This document shows positions 7,851 through 16,490 of a stretch of DNA of 16,490 bases, one piece after another; the first letter of the stretch is position 1; each line of letters starts with the position of its first letter. Below the pieces are notes generated by a model. That model was not told the DNA's origin and made no database searches. It saw nothing but the letters and a program-made list of their open reading frames with translations. The position numbers and the translations under genes were made by a program. The stretch is taken from NCBI GenBank assembly GCA_017476085.1, contig JAFVEJ010000122.1, forward strand, positions 1-16,490, written 5' to 3'. This DNA comes from Alphaproteobacteria bacterium (GTDB taxonomy: Bacteria > Pseudomonadota > Alphaproteobacteria > RF32 > CAG-977).

Positions 7851-8564
7851 ATGGAAAAAAGTGTGCCAAATGCGTCTGTTCGCAAAAACATAAACAAATC
7901 TGCTGTTTCCGGAGAAGGGCAAGCAGAAAAAGGCGGGCGTTTGGCTACTTTTATGTGGTTATCGCGTTTTTTTAACGCTTTATGCTTTTTGCTGGTTTTT
8001 ACGGCGTCCGTTTTATCTCTTTCTCTGATTCATATTGCAAAAGAGGCGGACGTTGATTCCGTGTTGGTGACCGCGCCGATGTTTTCTGACAATTTGGCCT
8101 ATTTTGAACCGTTGCATCCGGATATGCCGACAATGGATGTTTTGGCTGAAATGTTTGTTCGCCAATATGTGACGGTCAGAAACAGCGTTTGGCCAAATGA
8201 ACGGAAAATGCGGTATGATTGGGGGCCGGGCGGTATAATAAATAGAATGTCCACCTATCGCGTGTATGAAATTTTTGTCGAGAGAGAAGCAAAACATTAC
8301 TATCCTTCGATGGACTTTGAAAGCACGCCGGCAGTTGTGGTTGACACGAATATCAAAAAAATCATTAAAGAAGGCTGGAACAGCTGGCAGCTCTTTTTTG
8401 ATACGCGTAAAATGGCTAAATCAATCGATCCTCCGGAGATTGAACATTGGATCGCGACGATTCAATTCCGATATTACGCGTCAAATGCATTTATGCGGCC
8501 ATGGCTGCGCAATCCGTTAGGGTTTACGGTAACGCAGTATCATTTGGCACGTCAAAAGCAGTAG
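7851..8564 (+). CDS. VirB8-like T4SS inner-membrane protein, copy A (DotJ/DotI-type position)
   Basis: This 237-residue bitopic protein has a basic cytoplasmic N-terminus of about 35 residues, one membrane helix (about 36-61) and a periplasmic domain. It shares three blocks with copy B downstream: RQYVTVRN (104-111), WGPGGIINRMSTYRVYEIF (124-142) and NPLGFTVTQY (221-230). The last is a VirB8 hallmark near the C-terminus. VirB8/DotI proteins are assembly platforms of the T4SS inner-membrane complex and contact VirB9/VirB10. Two paralogs next to each other recall IcmM/IcmL (DotJ/DotI) of Legionella-type systems. It is the first gene of the operon. Its ribosome site is poor (only an A-rich stretch before the ATG). 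The NTF2-like fold is inferred from family knowledge, not seen. Confidence 0.8.
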   Translation: MEKSVPNASVRKNINKSAVSGEGQAEKGGRLATFMWLSRFFNALCFLLVFTASVLSLSLIHIAKEADVDSVLVTAPMFSDNLAYFEPLHPDMPTMDVLAEMFVRQYVTVRNSVWPNERKMRYDWGPGGIINRMSTYRVYEIFVEREAKHYYPSMDFESTPAVVVDTNIKKIIKEGWNSWQLFFDTRKMAKSIDPPEIEHWIATIQFRYYASNAFMRPWLRNPLGFTVTQYHLARQKQ

Positions 8565-8580: not shown

Positions 8581-8769
8581 ATGAAAATGATTGGAAAAGC
8601 GTTCTTTATTATCGGGCTTTGCGCCGTTTTAAACGCATGCGGTTCCATTTATGAGAAGGAAGTTGTCGGTATCGGGCCGGATATTTCCGAATTAAAGCGT
8701 TCTCCATGCGCTTGTATGCTGTTGAAATTGCCTGCAAATTTGCCTGATTGGATGGCGTCGAACGGATAA
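8581..8769 (+). CDS. Small T4SS lipoprotein with CxC motif (VirB7-like position)
   Basis: The 62-residue product has a short hydrophobic signal ending in the lipobox-like LNAC (Cys20), so it should be lipidated and exported. The mature part is about 42 residues and contains a CxC pair (Cys43, Cys45) in SPCACM, then LLKLPANLPDWM. Size and location fit a VirB7-like lipoprotein that stabilises the outer-membrane VirB9 ring, but I cannot recognise sequence similarity, and it is much shorter than DotK or DotD. GAGGAG (8568-8573) lies seven bases before the ATG, so this start is preferred over an upstream in-frame TTG whose reading would include that site. It sits 16 bases after copy A and 11 before copy B. 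Confidence 0.72.
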   Translation: MKMIGKAFFIIGLCAVLNACGSIYEKEVVGIGPDISELKRSPCACMLLKLPANLPDWMASNG

Positions 8770-8780
8770 ATGAGGGAAAT

Positions 8781-9563
8781 ATGCCCAGACCGGTTAAATC
8801 AAAACAACAGCTGACCATTAAAAATGCCGATACAGGTTCTGTCCCGGCAAAAAATTCCGATGCGGGAAACGTAAAGAAAACGGCGGCAGCGGCATCAACG
8901 CGGAATGCTGCCGGTACAGAACAAATTTCTGTTGATTTGCTTCGGGAACGCCGTTATTTGTGGACGGCTCGGGCATTTGCGATTGTGTCGGCTGTGGCGT
9001 TATGTCTTAATCTGGTTTTGTTGCTGGCAATTATGCATTTAATGCCGCTGAAACGGGTGGAACCGTTTTTGCTGACATTTCAGAACAGAGACGAACAAGT
9101 GGTGAAGATTCGTCCGTTGGCTAAGGATTTAGCGGCAGAAGATATTATTTCGGAAGCGATGATCCGTCAGTATGTGCTGCTGCGCAACACAATGATAGCC
9201 GATGTTGATGAAATGGCTTTTCGTTGGGGGCCTGACGGTCCTTTGCGCTGGATGTCGTCTTCGCAGGTTTATAATCAATTCAGCAAAACGGTCAAAGATT
9301 GGTTGGCTCGGATTAAACTGGAAGGATTGACGCGTGAAGTGCGTATTGAATCCGTTGTGCGCAACCAAAATATTTGGCTGGTTTATATCGTAACGCGCGA
9401 TATGTTGCCGGAAGCGGAAGAACCTGCTATTTCGCGTTGGCGTATCCGGCTGTCGATTAAATATTTCGGACAAGAGCAAAAAGAAGTGAAATATGTTAAC
9501 CGGCTTAAAAACCCGTTGGGATTTGCGGTTGACAGATATGCAATTGAAAGTGCTAACGATTAA
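8781..9563 (+). CDS. VirB8-like T4SS inner-membrane protein, copy B (DotI/IcmL-type position)
   Basis: The 260-residue protein has an Ala/Lys/Asn-rich cytoplasmic N-terminus of about 60 residues, one membrane helix (about 63-86) and a periplasmic VirB8-like domain. Shared blocks with copy A are RQYVLLRN (129-136), WGPDGPLRWMSSSQVYNQF (149-167) and NPLGFAVDRY (244-253). The middle region WLVYIVTRDM and SRWRIRLSIKYF looks like the beta-strands of the family. It should form part of the inner-membrane platform, perhaps a hetero-oligomer with copy A. The start at ATG 8781 follows GAGGG (8772-8776); another in-frame ATG at 8748 would overlap the lipoprotein gene. VirB8 (P-type) and DotI (I-type) cannot be separated with certainty by eye. 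Confidence 0.82.
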   Translation: MPRPVKSKQQLTIKNADTGSVPAKNSDAGNVKKTAAAASTRNAAGTEQISVDLLRERRYLWTARAFAIVSAVALCLNLVLLLAIMHLMPLKRVEPFLLTFQNRDEQVVKIRPLAKDLAAEDIISEAMIRQYVLLRNTMIADVDEMAFRWGPDGPLRWMSSSQVYNQFSKTVKDWLARIKLEGLTREVRIESVVRNQNIWLVYIVTRDMLPEAEEPAISRWRIRLSIKYFGQEQKEVKYVNRLKNPLGFAVDRYAIESAND

Positions 9564-9575
9564 AGAAGGTGTCCC

Positions 9576-11063
9576 GTGAAAAGATATTTTAAAATCCGCC
9601 TTTTTACAGTTATGTTGGTTTTGTGTTGTTTAACGGTTCGGACCGTTTCGGCACAGCAGACGGCTGCCCGCGAATCTATGGATGCGGCGATCGAACAGTC
9701 AAACGGTCAGTATTCCGAGATAGATATGCCTTTCTGGTCTTTGGGAATGCAGCAAAAAGCCTGGAACAAGCCGATGGAACATTTGGGAGAAGGCCAGTCT
9801 AAACCGGGATATTCAAAATATTACTGGACGCCGGATTTGGTTTTGCCTTTGCGTATTCGCGAAGGAATGCATACGCTGGTCAATTTCCCTTCTTGGGAAT
9901 TAATCGAAAACGTGTTTGTCGGGAATGAAACCGCTTTCGGAGCGCAGAAAGTCGCTCCGAACGGTTTGATGATTTTCGCGGCCAGCGTTGATTTGGTCGG
10001 AATGGATACGAATATGATCGTGTTCGGGCGTTCCGGAAACAGATATGTTTTTTATCTCAGAAGCGAAACTTTTAATACGGACAGAATTACAAATTCTGTC
10101 GTGGATATTATTGTCAACGACGCAAAATTTGTTCCCGACGAATCAGGATTGACGCCGACCGCGTCCGGTTCCGTGCCGGTCGGAGGCGGAATGGGAGTCG
10201 GTTTCGGTTCCGCCGGTAATATGCGCGGCGGAAAAACAACAAAGAACCCTACCGAAGACTGGCTGGCGGATGTGGCTGTGGATCCCGAAAAGCTGCGTTT
10301 TGATATCGATGTGTTTATTCCCAATCCGGCGGATATGGAAATTGCTCCCGAACGTGTATGGCGCGATGAAATTTTCACTTATATTGATTTCGGACCTAAG
10401 TCTTTGACGATGACGGAACGGCCGATTGTTAATATGCTTTCTCAAGGATCCGAAGTTCCCATCGGTTTCAGGACGCGCGGACCGAACGGTCGGTTAATGG
10501 TTGTAGAAGGAATCGGTGATCTGGTATTGCGCAACGGAAAAAGACTGCTATGTTTGAAAATCAGAAAAGATCCGTCATACGGAACGGAATGGGTGGAATA
10601 TGAAGCTTCCGTTCAGCCTAAATGGACGCCCGGTCCGATGATTACAACCGGCGGATATGATGGGACGAAGGTTCAATCTGCCGGAAATGTGCCGAATATG
10701 AATGCCGGAGCAAACACTTTCAGCGCAAATCAAATTGCCCAGTTTTCAATGCAGCGCAATCAGAGTTACGGATATGCCGCGCAGCCGTATCGCGGAGGAT
10801 CGGAAAACGGTTTTGCCATTGAGCTTGGTGCGGACAGTGAAATTTCTACATTGGAACAGAAATGGGATGCCATTGCGCGTAAAAACAGAGATTTGTTAGG
10901 CGGTTATGAGCCGTATTATTCGGTGGATGCCGTTGCGGAAGGCGAATCAAGAGATCTGTTCCGTTTGCGTATCGGTCCCGTGAACAGTATTGAAGCCGGG
11001 GATAAATTATGTAATCAATTGGGTCGCCGCGGGGTGACGTGTATGGTTGTGCGGACACAATGA
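9576..11063 (+). CDS. VirB9/CagX-like T4SS outer-membrane core protein with C-terminal SPOR domain
   Basis: The 495-residue protein has a signal peptide (cleavage near VSA-QQ, residue 26), an N-terminal VirB9-type beta-domain (about 86-182: LPLRIREGMHTLVNFP, GLMIFAAS, TNMIVFGRSGNRYVFYLRS), a Gly-rich linker (about 190-220) and the second VirB9/CagX domain (about 240-345: IAPERVWRDEIFTYIDFG, ERPIVN, LMVVEGIGDLVLRNGKRLL). After an Asn/Gln-rich linker comes a full SPOR domain (about 412-495), with FAIELGAD, a central helix ending DLLGGYEP, and FRLRIGPVNSIEAGDKLCNQ, ending CMVV. SPOR domains bind denuded peptidoglycan; VirB9 does not normally carry one. The GTG start has AAGAAGG five to six bases upstream. 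The stop overlaps the next start as ATGA, so the two are translationally coupled. Confidence 0.85.
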   Translation: MKRYFKIRLFTVMLVLCCLTVRTVSAQQTAARESMDAAIEQSNGQYSEIDMPFWSLGMQQKAWNKPMEHLGEGQSKPGYSKYYWTPDLVLPLRIREGMHTLVNFPSWELIENVFVGNETAFGAQKVAPNGLMIFAASVDLVGMDTNMIVFGRSGNRYVFYLRSETFNTDRITNSVVDIIVNDAKFVPDESGLTPTASGSVPVGGGMGVGFGSAGNMRGGKTTKNPTEDWLADVAVDPEKLRFDIDVFIPNPADMEIAPERVWRDEIFTYIDFGPKSLTMTERPIVNMLSQGSEVPIGFRTRGPNGRLMVVEGIGDLVLRNGKRLLCLKIRKDPSYGTEWVEYEASVQPKWTPGPMITTGGYDGTKVQSAGNVPNMNAGANTFSANQIAQFSMQRNQSYGYAAQPYRGGSENGFAIELGADSEISTLEQKWDAIARKNRDLLGGYEPYYSVDAVAEGESRDLFRLRIGPVNSIEAGDKLCNQLGRRGVTCMVVRTQ

Positions 11064-14000
11064 ACGAAGAATTACTCAGCTCATCAGACAGATATTTAAA
11101 AAAATCCAACAGGACTCTGTTGATTGTCGGGATTGTGGCTTTTTTGGCTTTCCTGATAGGCGTTTTTGTCTTGTTGCTCGGAGGGGAAGAACAAAAAAAA
11201 GATGCTGAGGTAACGATAGACGGAGCTGCCGACAGTTCCACAAGTATCGCCGGAGGTCAGGCGGATACGTTTAATTTGCCGCAGGATGCCGCGCCTTCAA
11301 CCATTCGTTTGGTAGTTTCTCCGGAAACGCTGCGTTTCGATCAGGTTGTTTTGGGAACAGAAGCGGAAGGAACGCTGACATTATCCGCTTCTTCCGGGCG
11401 TGTGGGCGTTACGTCCGTTGAATTTGAAAACAAGCAGGATGAAGGTTTCGTTCTGGACAATAAATGCCGTAAAGACATTGTCTTGACCGGAGATGTTACC
11501 TGTAACGTGGTTATTCGCTGGGAACCGAAAACAGCCCGCACGATGCAGTCGAACCTGGCTATTCGATGGAGTGACGAGACTTTCGGCGGGATCGGCCGAA
11601 AAGTTATCGTGCCGATTTCCGCTATGGCAATTGATACCAGTATGTGCGGCGTTTGTGACGAAGCGCCGGGCAGTGGCGGATCAATGCTTGAACAATTGCG
11701 TAAAAAAGGGCGCGTTATTTTGGGGCCGGACGGAAAACCGATCGGTTATGCGGATGAAAACGGGGTCGTTTATGGGTTGGACGGCAAAAGAATCGGGACT
11801 TTGCGTGAAGACGGAACGGTCGTTGACGATCAGGGATATGTGATCGGAGTTGCGGAAGGATCACGGTTGGCTATCGGGCCGAATGGGGAAGTTTTGGGAA
11901 CAATATTGCCGGATGGCCGTGTTATCGATAAGGATGGCCGCTTGATCGGTTACGCTTTGCCGGACGGAACGATTGTTGACGCAAACGGCAATGTGATCGG
12001 CGCGGCTGTTAAAACCGGATTGGCTTATGATAAAAACGGCAATGTGATCGGTCGGATAATGCCGGACGGTACCGTTGTCGATGAAAACGGCAATATTATC
12101 GGTTATGTCAATCCGGACGGAACGATCGTTGATGCAAACGGGAATATTATCGGTTCGGTCGCTCCTCAGGGTGCTGTCGTTGACGCATTGGGCAAACCAT
12201 TGGGGGTTGTTATGCCGGACGGCACCGTTGTCGATAAAGACGGCAATATTATCGGTCGCGTTTTGCCGAACGGTTTCGTCGTTGATAAAGACGGCAACAT
12301 TATCGGTCGTGTTGTCAAAGAAGGTCTGGCAATCGGTCCGGCATGCAAAATGGTCGGAAGAATCAGCACGGACGGTTCCGTTATGTCCGGCAATCGCCAG
12401 GTGGGGCGTTTGACGGCTTCTTTAACAGTTGTCGATATGTCCGGGAATCCGATAGCCGGTTACGTTGAAGAAGGCGCTTTGATTGACTGGAACGGTAAAA
12501 TCATCGGTAAAATCGATACCGACGGTCAGCCGGTTTCCTTTAAAGGAGAACCTTTGGGATGCCTGACGCCATATGGGACGGTTATCAATGATGCCGAAGA
12601 AATTACGTCCGCGGTATTGCCGAAAGGGACGGTTGTCGACAATCAGGCCGGCGTTATCGGTCGAATAATGCCGGATGGTTCGGTCGTCGGAGACGGTGAA
12701 TTAAAAGGCCGTATTTTGCCGGATAAAACGTTTTTATCTCAATCCGGTTCCATTGATGGTGCGCTGGCTCGTCAGAATGTGGGGGTCGGTCCCGGCTGTA
12801 TGGCTTTAGGGTATGCCAATGTAGACGGGCAGGTTATCACGGCGAAGGGAGACCTTGTCGGATATTTGGCTGCCAACGGTGAAATTCTTGACGATAAAAA
12901 GATTGTTTTGGGGCGAATTATGGATTCGTCGGTCGCCTTGAATAATCAGGGGCGGCTTGTCGGCATTATGGATGTGGACGGCAAAGTACAGGATAAAAAC
13001 GGCAAGATTTTGGGATGTATGGATCCTTCGGGAATTGTAATTAATTCCAAAAATGAAGCTATCGGAATGCAGATGCCCGTAGGCGGTGTGCTTGACCGCG
13101 ACGGGCGCACAATCGGCTGGGTGATGCCTGACGGGGCTGTTTCAAGCGCAAAAGGGGCTTCCGTCGGACGAGTCATGCCGGACAGCTCGGTTGTTGATTT
13201 AAGCGGCCAGACCGTTGCGCGCGTTGCTCCGTACAAGGGCTTTGCAATGAAAGACGCCTGCAGCATTGCCGGCAGTATATTGATGGACGGACGTGTTGTA
13301 GATAAAAACTTTAACCGCAGCGCATATATTCAAATGAATGACACGTTGGTTAATGAAGGCGGTTCTTTCCTGGGGCGCGTCGCTTATGCTCCCCGTGCAA
13401 TCAGCACCAAGGATGTTTATCTGGGCAGAACGGCACAAGATGGTGCGTTGTTTGATGCTTCCGGCAAAAAGCTCGGCTGTCTGCGTCCGGATTCTTTATT
13501 CGTTGATCAGAGCAACAAATTTTTAGGAGCCGCTTTGCCGGAGGGGGTCGCCGTCAACAGCAAAACAAGTCTGTATGCACGAGGCGATTCGATTGCAAAA
13601 GCAATGAATCTGAAAGGCTCATCCTTTATCGGAACAGTTACGCTCAGCGGCCTGATTAAAGAAAAAGATTCTATTACCGGCGGTATTATTCCTCCAAAAG
13701 CGGATGTTTTGGATATCAAAACCAGCAAAAAAATCGGTCGTCTGATGCCGGACGGATCAGCTGTGGATTTAGTTGGCAAATATTTAGGTCGTTTAAGAAT
13801 GCCCGCCGGAGAAATTGTGGATTCCGGCAACAAAGTCGTCGGGAAAATTTTTGTCGGTATGCGTCTGGTGGTCGGACCGAATGGGGAAATTCTGGGAGCT
13901 GTTATGCCGGACGGGTCTGTCGTGGATGCGACGGGACGTGTTATAGGCAAGGCAGATCTGAACGGTCAGGTGGTTGATGAAAACGGACGCGTGATCGGGG

Positions 14001-16490
14001 AAGTTATTCCTGTCGGTCAGCCGATTTTAGGGCCTGACGGTAAAATTATCGGTTATGTCGGTATAGATGGCAGTATTGTGGATAAAGACGGAAAACCTGT
14101 CTTGGGGCCGAACGGTAAGCCGATGCGTTACAGAGCCGGCGGTTCGGTGATAGAAGAAAACGGTAAAGTCATCGGTAAAGCGGGACAACTGGAGCGTCTT
14201 GTCTATGATGAAAACGGGAATGTGATCGGGCGCGTTTTGCCGGACGGCACAGTGGTGGATTTAAACGGCAAACCGATCGGTAAGTTATTGCCGGACGGCA
14301 CAGTCGTAGATGAAAACGGAAAGGTCATAGGTAAAGTCAAACAAAACGATCGTCTTGTTTATGACGAAAACGGGAATGTGATCGGGCGCGTTTTGCCGGA
14401 CGGCACAGTGGTGGATTTAAACGGTAAACCGATCGGAAAAATGCTGCCGGACGGCACTGTTGTAGATAAAAACGGCAGGGTTATCGGTAAAGCCGGCCAG
14501 CCGGAACACCTTGTCTATGACGAAAACGGAAATGTGATCGGGCGTGTTTTGCCGGACGGCACAGTGGTGGATTTAAACGGTAAACCGATCGGTAAATTAT
14601 TGCCGGACGGCACAGTCGTTTCTTTGGACGGTTCCGTGATCGGTTACTCTGTTAAAGACGGTTTGGGATTGAATTTTAAAAACGAAGTGCTGGGTAAAAT
14701 TGATTCCGCCGGTCAATTAAAAGAAACTGAAACTGGTCGGGTTTTAGGGACATTACAGGTTGATGATACAATTGCGGACAATAGAAATATTGTTGTCGGA
14801 AAAGGGATTATCAATGCCGTTCCGGTCGGATTGCAATGTCAGGTCATCGGTACGATTAACGATAAGGGATTGGTGATAGACACAACGGGGCGGCAATCCG
14901 GCAAAGTGAATTATGACCGTTCTTTGATTAATTCGATGAATTCCCAAATCGGGTTGGCGTTAAACCAGGAATCCGTCGTAGATGAAACCTGTAAAATTAT
15001 CGGGCAAATAACAACCGACGGTAAGGCTGTCGACATAAAGGGCAAAGAAATCGGCTGTGTTGATTATGAAGGTTTGGTTAAGGATGGGAACGGCAAACGT
15101 TTAGGCCGTATCGTGTCAAAAGGGCCGGTGTTGGGACCTGACGGAAATATTTCCGGAAAAATAGTCGCTAACGGAGAAGTTTTAGGGCAGCAGGGCGACG
15201 TTCTCGGATGTTTGAATGTTAATGGAGCCGTTGTTAATAAAAGTAAGAAAATTATCGGCGTTCCGTCTGAAATGAAATATGCCGTTGACGGTCAAGGCCA
15301 GATTGTTGCGCATATTATAGGCGGTTCTTACGGGGTTAATGCAATAGGCGGAGCTTTTGTCGGAAATGTATCCGGTCAGGAATTGAAAGGAACGGACGGC
15401 AAATCGTTGGGGGTTTTAATTCCGGGCGGCAGAAAAGTAATAGCCGTTGACGGCAAAATAGTCGGTACTGTTCTGCCGCGCGGCCGCGTGCAAAACGACA
15501 GCGGAGAAGAAGTCGGCTATGTAACTTCTTCAATGCGGGTGTTGACGGATGAACAAAAGTTTTTAGGACGAGTGGTTCCGATCGGCGAAGAATGTAAAGA
15601 CGGAAAAAATAAAACGGTCGGTAAAGTTCATTTCGACGGAACAATTATTGATGAAAAAAAACAGGTTCTCGGCCGATTAATGGCCAGCGGTCAGGCGCTG
15701 AATAATGCCGGAGCCCATTTATGTACGATTTCTTTGATCAGTACAAACGATGACGGTTCTTTGTTCCCGAAAGGATTAATCGGAAAAACAGTGTACGGTC
15801 CTGACGGAAAACCCTTGGGCGTTGTCGGAGCGGACGGTTTTATTCGGGATGCAAACGGTAATATTATCGGTCGCGTTTTGCCGGACGGAACCGTTGTCGA
15901 TTTGAACGGAAATGTTATCGGCAAGGCATATCCTAAAGGAGCGGTTTTCAGTCCGGACGGTAAATTTTTGGGAATCGTCGGCCCCGACGGCTTGCTGCGC
16001 GATGAAAACGGTAATGTCATTGGCAAAATGCTTCCGGACGGTACAGTCGTTGATATGAACGGGAATATTATCGGCAGAGCGCTTCAGGAAGACGGAATTG
16101 TTGATTCAAAAGGCAATTTTTTGACAAAGGCCGGTGCGGATCGTTTGGTCTATGACGCGAACGGGAATGTGATCGGGCGTGTTTTGCCGGACGGAACTGT
16201 TGTGGATTTAAACGGCAAACCGATCGGCAAGGTTATGCCGGACGGAACAGTTGTCGATTTTAACGGCAAAGTCATCGGTAAAGCCGGAAGCGGAACGGCG
16301 GAGCGTTTGGTTTATGATGCCAGCGGGAATGTAATCGGCAAGGTATTGCCGGACGGGACTGTTGTCGATTTAAAGGGAAATGTGATCGGCAAAATGTTGC
16401 CGGACGGCACAGTTGTTGATGCAAAGGGCAACGTTATCGGAAGAGCGGCGCCGGAAGCCGGTTCAGATAAAAATGTTCGTGTGGCGGTCG
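11060..16490 (+). CDS. Giant 17-residue-repeat T4SS protein, probable VirB10/DotG/CagY equivalent (3' end outside window)
   Basis: The frame is open from ATG 11060 to the last base (at least 1,810 codons); I read it codon by codon and found no stop. Layout: a short cytoplasmic N-terminus; a membrane helix (about 19-41); a linker; an Ig/ASH-like domain (about 80-192: SPETLRFDQVVLGTEAEGTL, then a Cys136/Cys148 pair); a CxxC (Cys196/Cys199); then from about residue 217 a continuous array of 17-residue units, consensus VLPDGTVVDLNGKPIGK. The bitopic N-terminus, the position after VirB8 and VirB9 and the repeat-rich middle match VirB10-family giants such as CagY and DotG, whose C-terminal domain closes the outer-membrane pore. 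That domain would be beyond the window, so the assignment is inference. No ribosome site is needed, given the ATGA overlap with the previous gene. Confidence 0.85.
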   Translation, partial: MNEELLSSSDRYLKKSNRTLLIVGIVAFLAFLIGVFVLLLGGEEQKKDAEVTIDGAADSSTSIAGGQADTFNLPQDAAPSTIRLVVSPETLRFDQVVLGTEAEGTLTLSASSGRVGVTSVEFENKQDEGFVLDNKCRKDIVLTGDVTCNVVIRWEPKTARTMQSNLAIRWSDETFGGIGRKVIVPISAMAIDTSMCGVCDEAPGSGGSMLEQLRKKGRVILGPDGKPIGYADENGVVYGLDGKRIGTLREDGTVVDDQGYVIGVAEGSRLAIGPNGEVLGTILPDGRVIDKDGRLIGYALPDGTIVDANGNVIGAAVKTGLAYDKNGNVIGRIMPDGTVVDENGNIIGYVNPDGTIVDANGNIIGSVAPQGAVVDALGKPLGVVMPDGTVVDKDGNIIGRVLPNGFVVDKDGNIIGRVVKEGLAIGPACKMVGRISTDGSVMSGNRQVGRLTASLTVVDMSGNPIAGYVEEGALIDWNGKIIGKIDTDGQPVSFKGEPLGCLTPYGTVINDAEEITSAVLPKGTVVDNQAGVIGRIMPDGSVVGDGELKGRILPDKTFLSQSGSIDGALARQNVGVGPGCMALGYANVDGQVITAKGDLVGYLAANGEILDDKKIVLGRIMDSSVALNNQGRLVGIMDVDGKVQDKNGKILGCMDPSGIVINSKNEAIGMQMPVGGVLDRDGRTIGWVMPDGAVSSAKGASVGRVMPDSSVVDLSGQTVARVAPYKGFAMKDACSIAGSILMDGRVVDKNFNRSAYIQMNDTLVNEGGSFLGRVAYAPRAISTKDVYLGRTAQDGALFDASGKKLGCLRPDSLFVDQSNKFLGAALPEGVAVNSKTSLYARGDSIAKAMNLKGSSFIGTVTLSGLIKEKDSITGGIIPPKADVLDIKTSKKIGRLMPDGSAVDLVGKYLGRLRMPAGEIVDSGNKVVGKIFVGMRLVVGPNGEILGAVMPDGSVVDATGRVIGKADLNGQVVDENGRVIGEVIPVGQPILGPDGKIIGYVGIDGSIVDKDGKPVLGPNGKPMRYRAGGSVIEENGKVIGKAGQLERLVYDENGNVIGRVLPDGTVVDLNGKPIGKLLPDGTVVDENGKVIGKVKQNDRLVYDENGNVIGRVLPDGTVVDLNGKPIGKMLPDGTVVDKNGRVIGKAGQPEHLVYDENGNVIGRVLPDGTVVDLNGKPIGKLLPDGTVVSLDGSVIGYSVKDGLGLNFKNEVLGKIDSAGQLKETETGRVLGTLQVDDTIADNRNIVVGKGIINAVPVGLQCQVIGTINDKGLVIDTTGRQSGKVNYDRSLINSMNSQIGLALNQESVVDETCKIIGQITTDGKAVDIKGKEIGCVDYEGLVKDGNGKRLGRIVSKGPVLGPDGNISGKIVANGEVLGQQGDVLGCLNVNGAVVNKSKKIIGVPSEMKYAVDGQGQIVAHIIGGSYGVNAIGGAFVGNVSGQELKGTDGKSLGVLIPGGRKVIAVDGKIVGTVLPRGRVQNDSGEEVGYVTSSMRVLTDEQKFLGRVVPIGEECKDGKNKTVGKVHFDGTIIDEKKQVLGRLMASGQALNNAGAHLCTISLISTNDDGSLFPKGLIGKTVYGPDGKPLGVVGADGFIRDANGNIIGRVLPDGTVVDLNGNVIGKAYPKGAVFSPDGKFLGIVGPDGLLRDENGNVIGKMLPDGTVVDMNGNIIGRALQEDGIVDSKGNFLTKAGADRLVYDANGNVIGRVLPDGTVVDLNGKPIGKVMPDGTVVDFNGKVIGKAGSGTAERLVYDASGNVIGKVLPDGTVVDLKGNVIGKMLPDGTVVDAKGNVIGRAAPEAGSDKNVRVAV
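12344..13720 (+). repeat. Super-repeat of about 153 residues with paired cysteines (three copies)
   Basis: Units begin at Cys429, Cys580 and Cys734 (spacings 151 and 154 residues, near nine 17-mers). Each has a first Cys in an ACKMVG, GCMALG or ACSIAG context and a second in an LGCL or LGCM context at 501, 653 and 807. The distances between first and second Cys are 72, 73 and 73 residues. Sequence after each cysteine aligns well between units one and two; unit three is more divergent and runs into a low-similarity stretch. Confidence 0.8.
14201..14620 (+). repeat. 156-bp tandem DNA repeat, about 2.7 copies
   Basis: Copies start at 14201, 14357 and 14513, exactly 156 bases (52 residues: 17+17+18) apart. 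Copies one and two share an unbroken identical run of 59 bases from GAAAACGGGA to TTTAAACGG, and copy three differs there at only a few sites. Identity at silent positions indicates recent duplication or gene conversion, unlike the older diverged 17-mers. Confidence 0.9.
14837..15211 (+). repeat. Second cysteine-bearing degenerate block with two interleaved Cys pairs
   Basis: Cysteines at residues 1260 (LQCQVIG), 1311 (ETCKIIG), 1333 (EIGCV) and 1384 (VLGCL) form two overlapping pairs, 1260-1333 and 1311-1384, both 73 residues apart and offset by 51 residues (three 17-mers). Confidence 0.75.
16148..16447 (+). repeat. 162-bp tandem DNA repeat, about two copies, related to the 156-bp repeat
   Basis: Copies start at 16148 and 16310. 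They share the LVYD-x-x-GNVIG opening and two LPDGTVVD units with the repeat at 14201-14620. Two extra codons in the GSGTAE spacer explain the 162-bp period. The array may continue beyond the window. Confidence 0.8.

What the first reader, a model, noticed from the sequence alone, without database searches (positions are those of the whole stretch)
12344..15211. Invariant 72-73-residue cysteine pairs and a 9 x 17-residue super-repeat
In the degenerate blocks, cysteines of one context (C followed two or three residues later by G) and of a second context (LGC or IGC) are spaced 72, 73, 73, 73 and 73 residues apart in five cases. First-type cysteines recur after 151 and 154 residues, close to nine repeat units. 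In the second block two such pairs interleave with a 51-residue offset. Regular blocks have no cysteines. This suggests periodic disulfides that staple distant repeats, or lock neighbouring subunits in a ring.
Basis: partly seen in the sequence, partly recalled or inferred. Interest (0 to 1): 0.85.

Follow-up and report, generated by a model that had tools for sequence, protein, structure and literature searches.

The report
Disulfide-stapled repeats in a giant VirB10
A very long repeat protein, probably the stalk of a bacterial secretion machine in gut Alphaproteobacteria, carries pairs of cysteines five repeats apart that relatives keep or lose together, which suggests built-in disulfide staples.

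Summary
In the repeat part of the open frame 11039-16489(+), 10 of 12 cysteines form five pairs 72, 73, 73, 73 and 73 residues apart; chance gave 0 of 20,000 such placements. In repeat register the first Cys always sits in turn column 14 and the second in strand column 2, five repeats on.

In 109 non-redundant sequences, 292 of 301 column-14 Cys have a partner exactly five repeats later. At three sites in 113 full-length relatives there are 307 both, 31 neither and 1 single. So disulfide pairs are well supported. The bond and its 3D distance were not measured. Intrachain is favoured; interchain is not excluded.

The protein is a giant VirB10 with a beta-meander (beta-flower-like) array, in a virB8-virB8-virB9-virB10 cluster. 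The "nine-repeat super-repeat" is a special case: the quantum is three repeats (182 of 183 offsets), and the Cys-free block between Cys blocks varies in length, often in near three-repeat steps. In 37 of 80 loci virB10 is split into two frames; no 73-residue pair spans the cut.

The parts
7851..8564 (+). VirB8-like gene (first copy)
   Evidence: Pfam VirB8 48.7 bits, cut-off 23.2; no NCBIfam match
8748..9563 (+). VirB8-like gene (second copy)
   Evidence: Pfam VirB8 77.5 bits, cut-off 23.2
9576..11063 (+). VirB9-like gene with a C-terminal SPOR domain
   Evidence: Pfam CagX 48.3 bits and SPOR 23.6 bits, both over cut-off; NCBIfam VirB9 43.3 bits, under its 217.7 cut-off
11060..16489 (+). giant VirB10-like gene, open at the window's 3' end. 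Residue numbers in this report count from the GTG at 11039; the likelier start is the ATG at 11060, overlapping the virB9 stop, so subtract 7
   Evidence: frame; sequence of the junction; Bflower_2 396.7 bits with 23 stretches; most complete relatives end in TrbI
11123..11179 (+). single strong hydrophobic stretch (residues 29-47), presumed inner-membrane anchor
   Evidence: hydropathy 3.18 over 19 residues
11465..11503 (+). N-terminal Cys pair 143/155
   Evidence: both present in 112 of 113 full-length relatives, neither in 1
11645..11656 (+). CxxC 203/206, just before the repeats
   Evidence: both present in 113 of 113
11711..12343 (+). regular repeat block 1, no Cys
12344..12562 (+). Cys pair 436-508 (72 residues; repeat 13 column 14 to repeat 18 column 2)
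   Evidence: 102 both, 11 neither, 0 single of 113
12797..13018 (+). Cys pair 587-660 (73)
   Evidence: 113 of 113 both
13259..13480 (+). Cys pair 741-814 (73)
   Evidence: also in the 11 loci of alignment A2 nearest to the window, L001-L008 and L010-L012
13841..14653 (+). regular repeat block 2, no Cys; DNA holds a 156-base (three-repeat, 52-residue) tandem array at 14151-14619
   Evidence: TRF 3.0 copies, 84% matches; the distance between the Cys blocks varies from 292 to 615 residues among 19 sequences, window included
14837..15058 (+). Cys pair 1267-1340 (73)
   Evidence: by its distances P0009 lacks both partners while keeping the next pair
14990..15211 (+). Cys pair 1318-1391 (73), interleaved with the previous one at +51
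15593..15724 (+). further Cys pair 1519/1562 (43 apart), different register
   Evidence: 42-43 apart in the 19 sequences of the window's own group; other groups have pairs 57 or 21-22 apart in the C-terminal part
15776..16489 (+). regular repeat block 3, no Cys, runs off the window

Best explanation
The gene encodes a giant VirB10 of a VirB-type type IV secretion system. Between its membrane anchor and its outer-membrane (TrbI) domain lies a continuous antiparallel beta-meander; the window shows more than ninety of its 17-residue repeats. In the blocks where the repeat consensus is weakest, single Cys at turn column 14 of repeat r and strand column 2 of repeat r+5 come close in the fold and form disulfides within one chain, each stapling a span of about 4.3 repeats, including two interleaved pairs. 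The stapled blocks have fixed length; the Cys-free regular block between them grows and shrinks, often in about three-repeat steps, probably by recombination. The likely role is to stiffen a long periplasmic stalk, and to hold repeat register, where consensus packing is weak. Shown here: the pairs, their register, their joint inheritance, the fixed and variable lengths, the gene order and the meander pattern of strands. Inferred: that the bonds form, that they are intrachain, recombination as the cause of length change, the place in the periplasm and the mechanical role.
For: Register: columns 14 and 2 hold 301 and 308 of the 794 repeat-region Cys in 109 representatives; 292 of 301 pair at +5 repeats, while only 251 Cys-Cys distances are exactly 73 residues, so repeat register is kept more strictly than residue count. 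Joint inheritance: 307 both, 31 neither, 1 single over three sites and 113 relatives. On a tree from the N-terminal part before the paired sites, A1 and B1 change five times each, always together; A2 three times and B2 four times, four jointly; on strongly supported branches 3 + 3 independent contrasts go the same way in 3.0 and 2.9 on average, none the other way (each alone is too few for significance). Even Cys number in 96 of 105. The 73-residue pairing, not the 22-residue alternative, is favoured: 20 sequences lack sites 537 and 609 and keep 587 and 660, and P0009, judged by its distances, keeps 1318/1391 and lacks 1267/1340. Divergent proteins fetched afterwards repeat it: in L097, L099, L101 and L102 (six-letter-word overlap 0.02-0.06 with the earlier set) there are 8 repeat-region pairs at 71-74, plus one at 68. 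In 37 loci with split virB10 the first half holds two whole pairs in 37 and the second one whole pair in 35. Structure: models of residues 425-835 (pLDDT 91.8, pTM 0.87) and 1200-1440 (88.7, 0.82) are almost all beta; pooled couplings show both hairpin turns of a meander. A DsbA-family protein was found in 16 of 16 genomes looked at.
Against: No coordinates were returned, so no Cys-Cys distance is known. Neither DsbB nor VKOR was found in the same 16 genomes (0 of 16 each; the controls rang in 6 and 3 of 14), so the oxidant for DsbA is unknown, and these look like gut organisms with small genomes. Joint inheritance and even counts fit interchain bonds equally well, and isolated CagY motifs multimerised through Cys (PMC2581425, passages). 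Exceptions exist: P0023 has a lone B2; 9 of 301 column-14 and 16 of 308 column-2 Cys lack a +5 partner in register, two and three of them still 72-73 residues from a Cys; the L044 fragment has 477 and 572 unpaired; 9 of 105 have odd counts; lone Cys occur in L097 (2213), L106 (335) and the second frame of L100 (1290) and in six split-type frames. Long-range couplings were too weak to say which repeats stack.
Confidence: 0.7

Rival explanations
1. The pairs are disulfides between neighbouring subunits of the VirB10 ring (A of one copy to B of the next), locking the ring covalently.
For: VirB10-type proteins form rings (paper passages); a constant offset, joint loss and even counts fit this as well; isolated CagY motifs multimerise partly through Cys (passages).
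Against: Needs a constant stagger of about 4.3 repeats between neighbours at every site, also in both halves of the split proteins and for interleaved pairs. The single-chain models are confident, but without distances this is weak.
Confidence: 0.17
2. The Cys are not cross-linked: they are conserved for another reason (metal or cofactor binding, redox sensing) or are hitch-hiking on block duplication.
For: Pairs sit in a few blocks that could have been copied; no DsbB or VKOR found in 16 genomes.
Against: Joint loss by point change with the flanking repeats kept (L016 against L014, L015 and L019: C to G and C to Y) is hard to explain by duplication; one Cys pair per span is poor for a metal; the context of the two Cys is plain repeat consensus.
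Confidence: 0.08
3. Disulfides form, but with the other pairing in interleaved blocks (1318-1340, 22 apart, and 1267-1391, 124 apart).
For: In the C-terminal part of some relatives pairs 21-22 apart do occur, in another register.
Against: P0009 and the 20 sequences lacking A2/B2 keep the 73-residue partner and not the 22-residue one; isolated pairs are at 73.
Confidence: 0.05

Closest known systems
CagY (Helicobacter pylori Cag T4SS, VirB10 homolog)
   Same: A giant VirB10 with a long repeat region ahead of the C-terminal VirB10 domain, regularly placed Cys, and disulfides proposed (PMC2581425, PMC10706595, passages seen). TrbI parts match by sequence (P0002 to CagY chains, E 1e-7 to 5e-6).
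   Different: CagY repeats are alpha-helical; the A motif has 38-39 residues, and a model gives two Cys per module with local bonds (passages). Here repeats are 17-residue beta hairpins and partners are five repeats apart, in a few blocks only.
DotG/IcmE (Dot/Icm type IVB system)
   Same: VirB10 homolog whose pentapeptide repeats were suggested to lie in the stalk (PMC7511231, passages seen).
   Different: NCBIfam's DotG/IcmE model gives P0018 20.5 bits against a cut-off of 750, over the TrbI end only, and does not list P0095; the gene after virB10 in L001 scores as VirB11 rather than DotB (143.4 against 16.2 bits).
Beta-flower fold (Pfam PF21784/PF21785, clan of Tubby)
   Same: Repeat family matches far above cut-off; hairpin repeats with a [DNEQ]xxG turn (PMC10584680, passages seen).
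   Different: Described beta-flowers are small barrels of 8, 10 or 12 strands; here more than ninety repeats run on, with interleaved cross-links, so a row of separate closed flowers is unlikely, though untested.
Rhs/YD-repeat shells, choline-binding and CROP hairpin repeats
   Same: Several of Foldseek's highest rows are hairpin-repeat proteins.

Membership tests
VirB10 (TrbI family) | C-terminal TrbI domain | tested here: met
   Not seen in the window, whose frame runs off the end. Met in three of four relatives scanned: P0002 104.6, P0018 118.7, P0095 114.7 bits against 35; P0067, a first half of a split protein, has none. TrbI matches in 16 of 16 genomes of relatives
VirB10 (TrbI family) | single N-terminal membrane anchor | tested here: met
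   hydropathy peak 3.18 at residue 29; no topology program was run
VirB10 (TrbI family) | gene order virB8-virB9-virB10-virB11 | tested here: met
   window up to virB10. L001 has frames in the same order and then a VirB11-like gene, 143.4 bits, under the strict cut-off of 250
VirB10 (TrbI family) | NCBIfam VirB10/ComB10 models over cut-off | tested here: not met
   P0095 94.3 and 113.2, P0018 101.8 and 99.2 bits against 220 and 300: best-scoring models but below these strict cut-offs, so at most a divergent VirB10; Pfam's TrbI cut-off, which defines the family used here, is passed
VirB10 (TrbI family) | ring in the outer-membrane core complex | not testable with these tools
   needs purified complex
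DotG/IcmE | NCBIfam equivalog NF033900 | tested here: not met
   P0018 20.5 bits against 750; not listed for P0095
CagY | alpha-helical repeat modules | tested here: not met
   both models are almost purely beta
Beta-flower repeats (PF21785) | profile match over cut-off | tested here: met
   396.7 bits against 38
Beta-flower repeats (PF21785) | closed barrel of 4-6 hairpins | tested here: inconclusive
   meander shown by couplings; closure not visible without coordinates
Periplasmic disulfide protein | paired Cys inherited together | tested here: met
   307 both, 31 neither, 1 single
Periplasmic disulfide protein | oxidation machinery in the same genomes | tested here: inconclusive
   DsbA family 16 of 16; DsbB 0 of 16; VKOR 0 of 16; DsbD_TM 10 of 16
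Periplasmic disulfide protein | bond observed | not testable with these tools
   needs protein chemistry

The most novel reading that the evidence does not exclude
A new kind of T4SS stalk: one continuous beta-meander of about a hundred repeats whose length is tuned in three-repeat quanta by recombination in Cys-free segments, interrupted by fixed-length segments held in register by a long-range disulfide ladder (repeat r to r+5), and which in one group has been cut into an inner-membrane-anchored half and a separately exported outer-membrane half that must meet through the array.
Probability: 0.4. Interest if true: 0.8.

Novelty: new variant of a known kind. Interest (0 to 1): 0.63.

Why it matters
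Giant VirB10 proteins with Cys-bearing repeats were known from CagY, where the bond partners are modelled and Cys changes were tested on isolated motifs (passages). Here the partners can be read from evolution alone, at a fixed distance of five repeats, in a repeat fold for which the searches made here found no good match among solved structures. This gives residue-level restraints for the stalk of a type IV secretion system found in many gut and rumen Alphaproteobacteria MAGs, and the natural split of VirB10 would test whether that protein must span both membranes as one chain.

Tried and rejected
DotG/IcmE: my first label for the gene (notes); dropped after NCBIfam scores favoured VirB10/VirB11.

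Nine-repeat super-repeat as a structural unit: rejected, since first-type sites are at multiples of three repeats (182 of 183) and most relatives fill the +6 site.

Separate closed five-hairpin flowers each closed by one disulfide: attractive for the isolated pairs, but interleaved pairs (offset three repeats) cannot both close separate flowers; not settled.

Reading the superhelix from couplings: the two hairpin turns come out clearly, long-range couplings do not stand out from noise; no claim is made on repeats per turn.

Sequence search of solved structures with A2 and with the window ORF found nothing below E 0.07.

A viral-contig scan with VirB9 found no relative. PF10412 (TrwB/VirD4 type) matched in 16 of 16 genomes, but also in 7 of 14 controls, so I make nothing of it. 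Rows dropped: of 80 loci, four with fewer than 15 repeat motifs were left out of the 197-sequence set; the parity count leaves out the window and loci frames without a stop (105 of 109); L056, a split-type protein, was removed from 114 rows before the pair count; repeat identity by lag used the first 60 of 109 representatives.

Literature: the listings showed no paper on this repeat type in VirB10; DUF3659 appears in no held paper, VirB10 together with DUF3659 in none. Only open-licence papers are held, and I read passages, no whole paper. The DsbA2/Dot-Icm study (PMC3086132) is not held; I saw it only as a citation.

Full report
Observation. The open frame 11039-16489(+) (1817 residues, open at the window's end) has 17 Cys. 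Those in the repeat part are 436, 508, 587, 660, 741, 814, 1267, 1318, 1340, 1391, 1519 and 1562. A cyclic 17-residue profile places each first-type Cys in column 14 (the turn Gly of ..DENGKVIGR..) of repeat r and each second-type Cys in column 2 of repeat r+5: 13 to 18, 22 to 27, 31 to 36, 61 to 66, 64 to 69. Random placement gives 0 of 20,000 (two nulls); any single spacing bin reaches five pairs in 8 of 20,000.

What the gene is. Pfam finds beta-flower repeats (396.7 bits) in the window's frame. A search with residues 425-835 gave 136 proteins; the best 120 are listed, 1013-2609 residues long, most with TrbI. TrbI was confirmed in P0002, P0018 and P0095 of four proteins scanned; P0067 has none. 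P0002's end matches ComB10, CagY and VirB10 chains of the PDB. NCBIfam scores favour VirB10/ComB10 (94-113 bits, below the strict cut-offs of 220 and 300) over DotG/IcmE (20.5 bits for P0018). The window reads virB8, virB8, virB9 with SPOR, virB10. In relative L001 frames in the same row are followed by a VirB11-like gene. A VirB9 alignment found 108 loci in genome contigs, of which the best 80 were kept; their titles mostly name Alphaproteobacteria, many from rumen, gut or faeces. No whole genome is held for the window. In 289 genomes drawn from the class of G001, 20 had a PF21785 match, 17 over the cut-off.

Homolog test. 197 sequences (window, 120 proteins, 76 of 80 loci) were reduced to 109 (repeat positions). 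In these, columns 14 and 2 hold 301 and 308 of 794 Cys, the next highest column 37. 292 of 301 column-14 Cys have a column-2 Cys at +5 repeats. 251 Cys-Cys distances are exactly 73, 21 are 72, 11 are 74 and 11 are 75: the repeat count is conserved more strictly than the residue count. Nine of 301 and 16 of 308 lack the +5 partner in register; two and three of these have a Cys at 72-73 residues all the same.

Joint gain and loss. In 113 full-length relatives (114 aligned, L056 removed), the site pair 436/508 is both in 102, neither in 11, single in 0; 537/609 is both in 92, neither in 20 (the window included), single in 1 (P0023); 587/660 is both in 113. On a tree from the N-terminal part before these sites, 436/508 changes five times, both members each time; 537 changes three times and 609 four (four jointly). 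Independent contrasts on strongly supported branches: 3 and 3, agreeing in 3.0 and 2.9 on average; too few for significance one by one. The cleanest case is L016, which has G and Y where its relatives L014, L015 and L019 have C and C. The Cys number beyond residue 210 is even in 96 of 105 representatives.

Fresh check. Ten regions were fetched later. L098 and L103, and one frame each of L105 and L106, were already in the set. Among the new frames, L097 (2838 residues, word overlap 0.02) has pairs at 73, 71, 74 and 74 and a lone Cys 2213; L099 one at 73 and one at 68; L101 two at 73; L102 one at 73 in its longest frame and no Cys in two shorter ones; L104 two and one at 73; the new frames of L105 and L106 two and one at 73, with a lone Cys 335 in L106; L100, a gene broken over two frames, one in each, with Cys 521 and 572 and a lone 1290 left over. 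L103, identical to L026, has no Cys beyond residue 206.

Which partners. In interleaved blocks each first-type Cys has candidates at 22, 73 or 124 residues. Twenty sequences lack 537 and 609 and keep 587 and 660; P0009, judged by distances, keeps the equivalents of 1318 and 1391 and lacks those of 1267 and 1340. Both favour 73.

Fixed and variable lengths. In the window and 18 relatives of its group the Cys positions inside the blocks barely move (first block ends at 376-380; second block 51, 73, 124 in all but L012 and P0009), while the distance between blocks takes the values 292, 297, 298, 351, 401, 402, 453, 575 and 615. Several steps are near 51-54 residues, three repeats; not all are (292 and 575 do not fit well). 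The window has a 156-base array and L005 one of 162 bases. First-type offsets within 20 repeats are multiples of three in 182 of 183, and repeat identity peaks at lag 3 (0.355 in the window against 0.320 at lag 1; 0.232 against 0.220 in 60 representatives). Repeats in the window's Cys blocks score lower against the profile than regular ones (15.2 against 23.2 bits, 29 and 44 repeats).

Split gene. In 37 of 80 loci two repeat frames lie in a row. In the examples printed, the first begins with a membrane anchor and the second with what looks like a cleavable signal peptide (judged by eye from N-termini and hydropathy). In the six split-type genomes searched (G010-G015) the one TrbI match lies in the second frame, by frame length. 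The first frame has two interleaved pairs in 37 of 37; the second has one pair in 35, none in L063 (no Cys beyond residue 210) and none in L037 (cut by the contig end); pairs here are 72-75 apart. The last Cys of each first frame lies 225-440 residues before its end, so no such pair can span the cut. Outside these pairs, apart from the N-terminal CxxC around residues 211-222, there is one lone Cys in each of six frames (L042, L047, L048, L053, L058, L060) and two in L039.

Structure. Models of residues 425-835 (30 sequences) and 1200-1440 (22 sequences) are confident and almost all beta. The tool gave no coordinates, so distances could not be measured. Pooled couplings with Cys masked put the strongest pairs at 4-8 and 4-10 (turn at PDG) and at 11-15, 8-16, 10-16, 9-17 and 8-2 of the next repeat (turn at NG), as expected for a continuous antiparallel meander. 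Long-range couplings were weak. PDB and viral fold searches gave no good match.

Oxidation. In 16 genomes reached through loci, a DsbA-family match was found in 16, DsbB in 0, VKOR in 0 and DsbD_TM in 10; the 14 control genomes rang in 8, 6, 3 and 10. PF01323 also holds cytoplasmic relatives (recalled), so this shows capacity only loosely. Disulfide formation in Dot/Icm proteins by Legionella DsbA2 is known to me here only from citations.

Conclusion. Paired Cys are real, shared by distant relatives and inherited as units; disulfides are by far the likeliest reason. Intrachain stapling is favoured mainly because the offset is constant in repeat units at nearly every site, but ring locking is not excluded. 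CagY is the nearest analogue in what it works like; the repeat fold and the long-range pairing differ.

Noticed in passing
L035:11636-19628 and 36 other loci among L032-L073: virB10 split in two frames: an anchored first half and a second half with an apparent signal peptide and, in the six genomes searched, the TrbI domain; each with its own repeat array.
   Followed up: partly
window 9576-11063: The VirB9-like protein carries a C-terminal SPOR (peptidoglycan-binding) domain, also listed for part of its relatives.
   Followed up: no
window 11465-11656: Two more conserved Cys pairs before the repeats: 143/155 (112 of 113) and CxxC 203/206 (113 of 113).
   Followed up: partly
window 15593-15724; C-terminal parts of relatives: Another class of Cys pairs with group-specific spacing (about 43, 57 or 21-22), sometimes in repeated copies, e.g. 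P0010 and P0022.
   Followed up: partly
genomes G001-G016: DsbA family present in 16 of 16 but DsbB and VKOR in 0 of 16: the oxidant is unknown.
   Followed up: partly
genomes G002 and G004: A second, short TrbI protein (383-residue frame), perhaps from another conjugation system.
   Followed up: no
L100, minus strand, reverse-complement positions 2116 to about 8690: A virB10 relative broken over two overlapping frames, possibly an assembly error; left as it is.
   Followed up: no
L063 second repeat frame (15032): The only complete second-half protein among the 37 split loci without the 73-residue pair; it has no Cys at all beyond residue 210.
   Followed up: no
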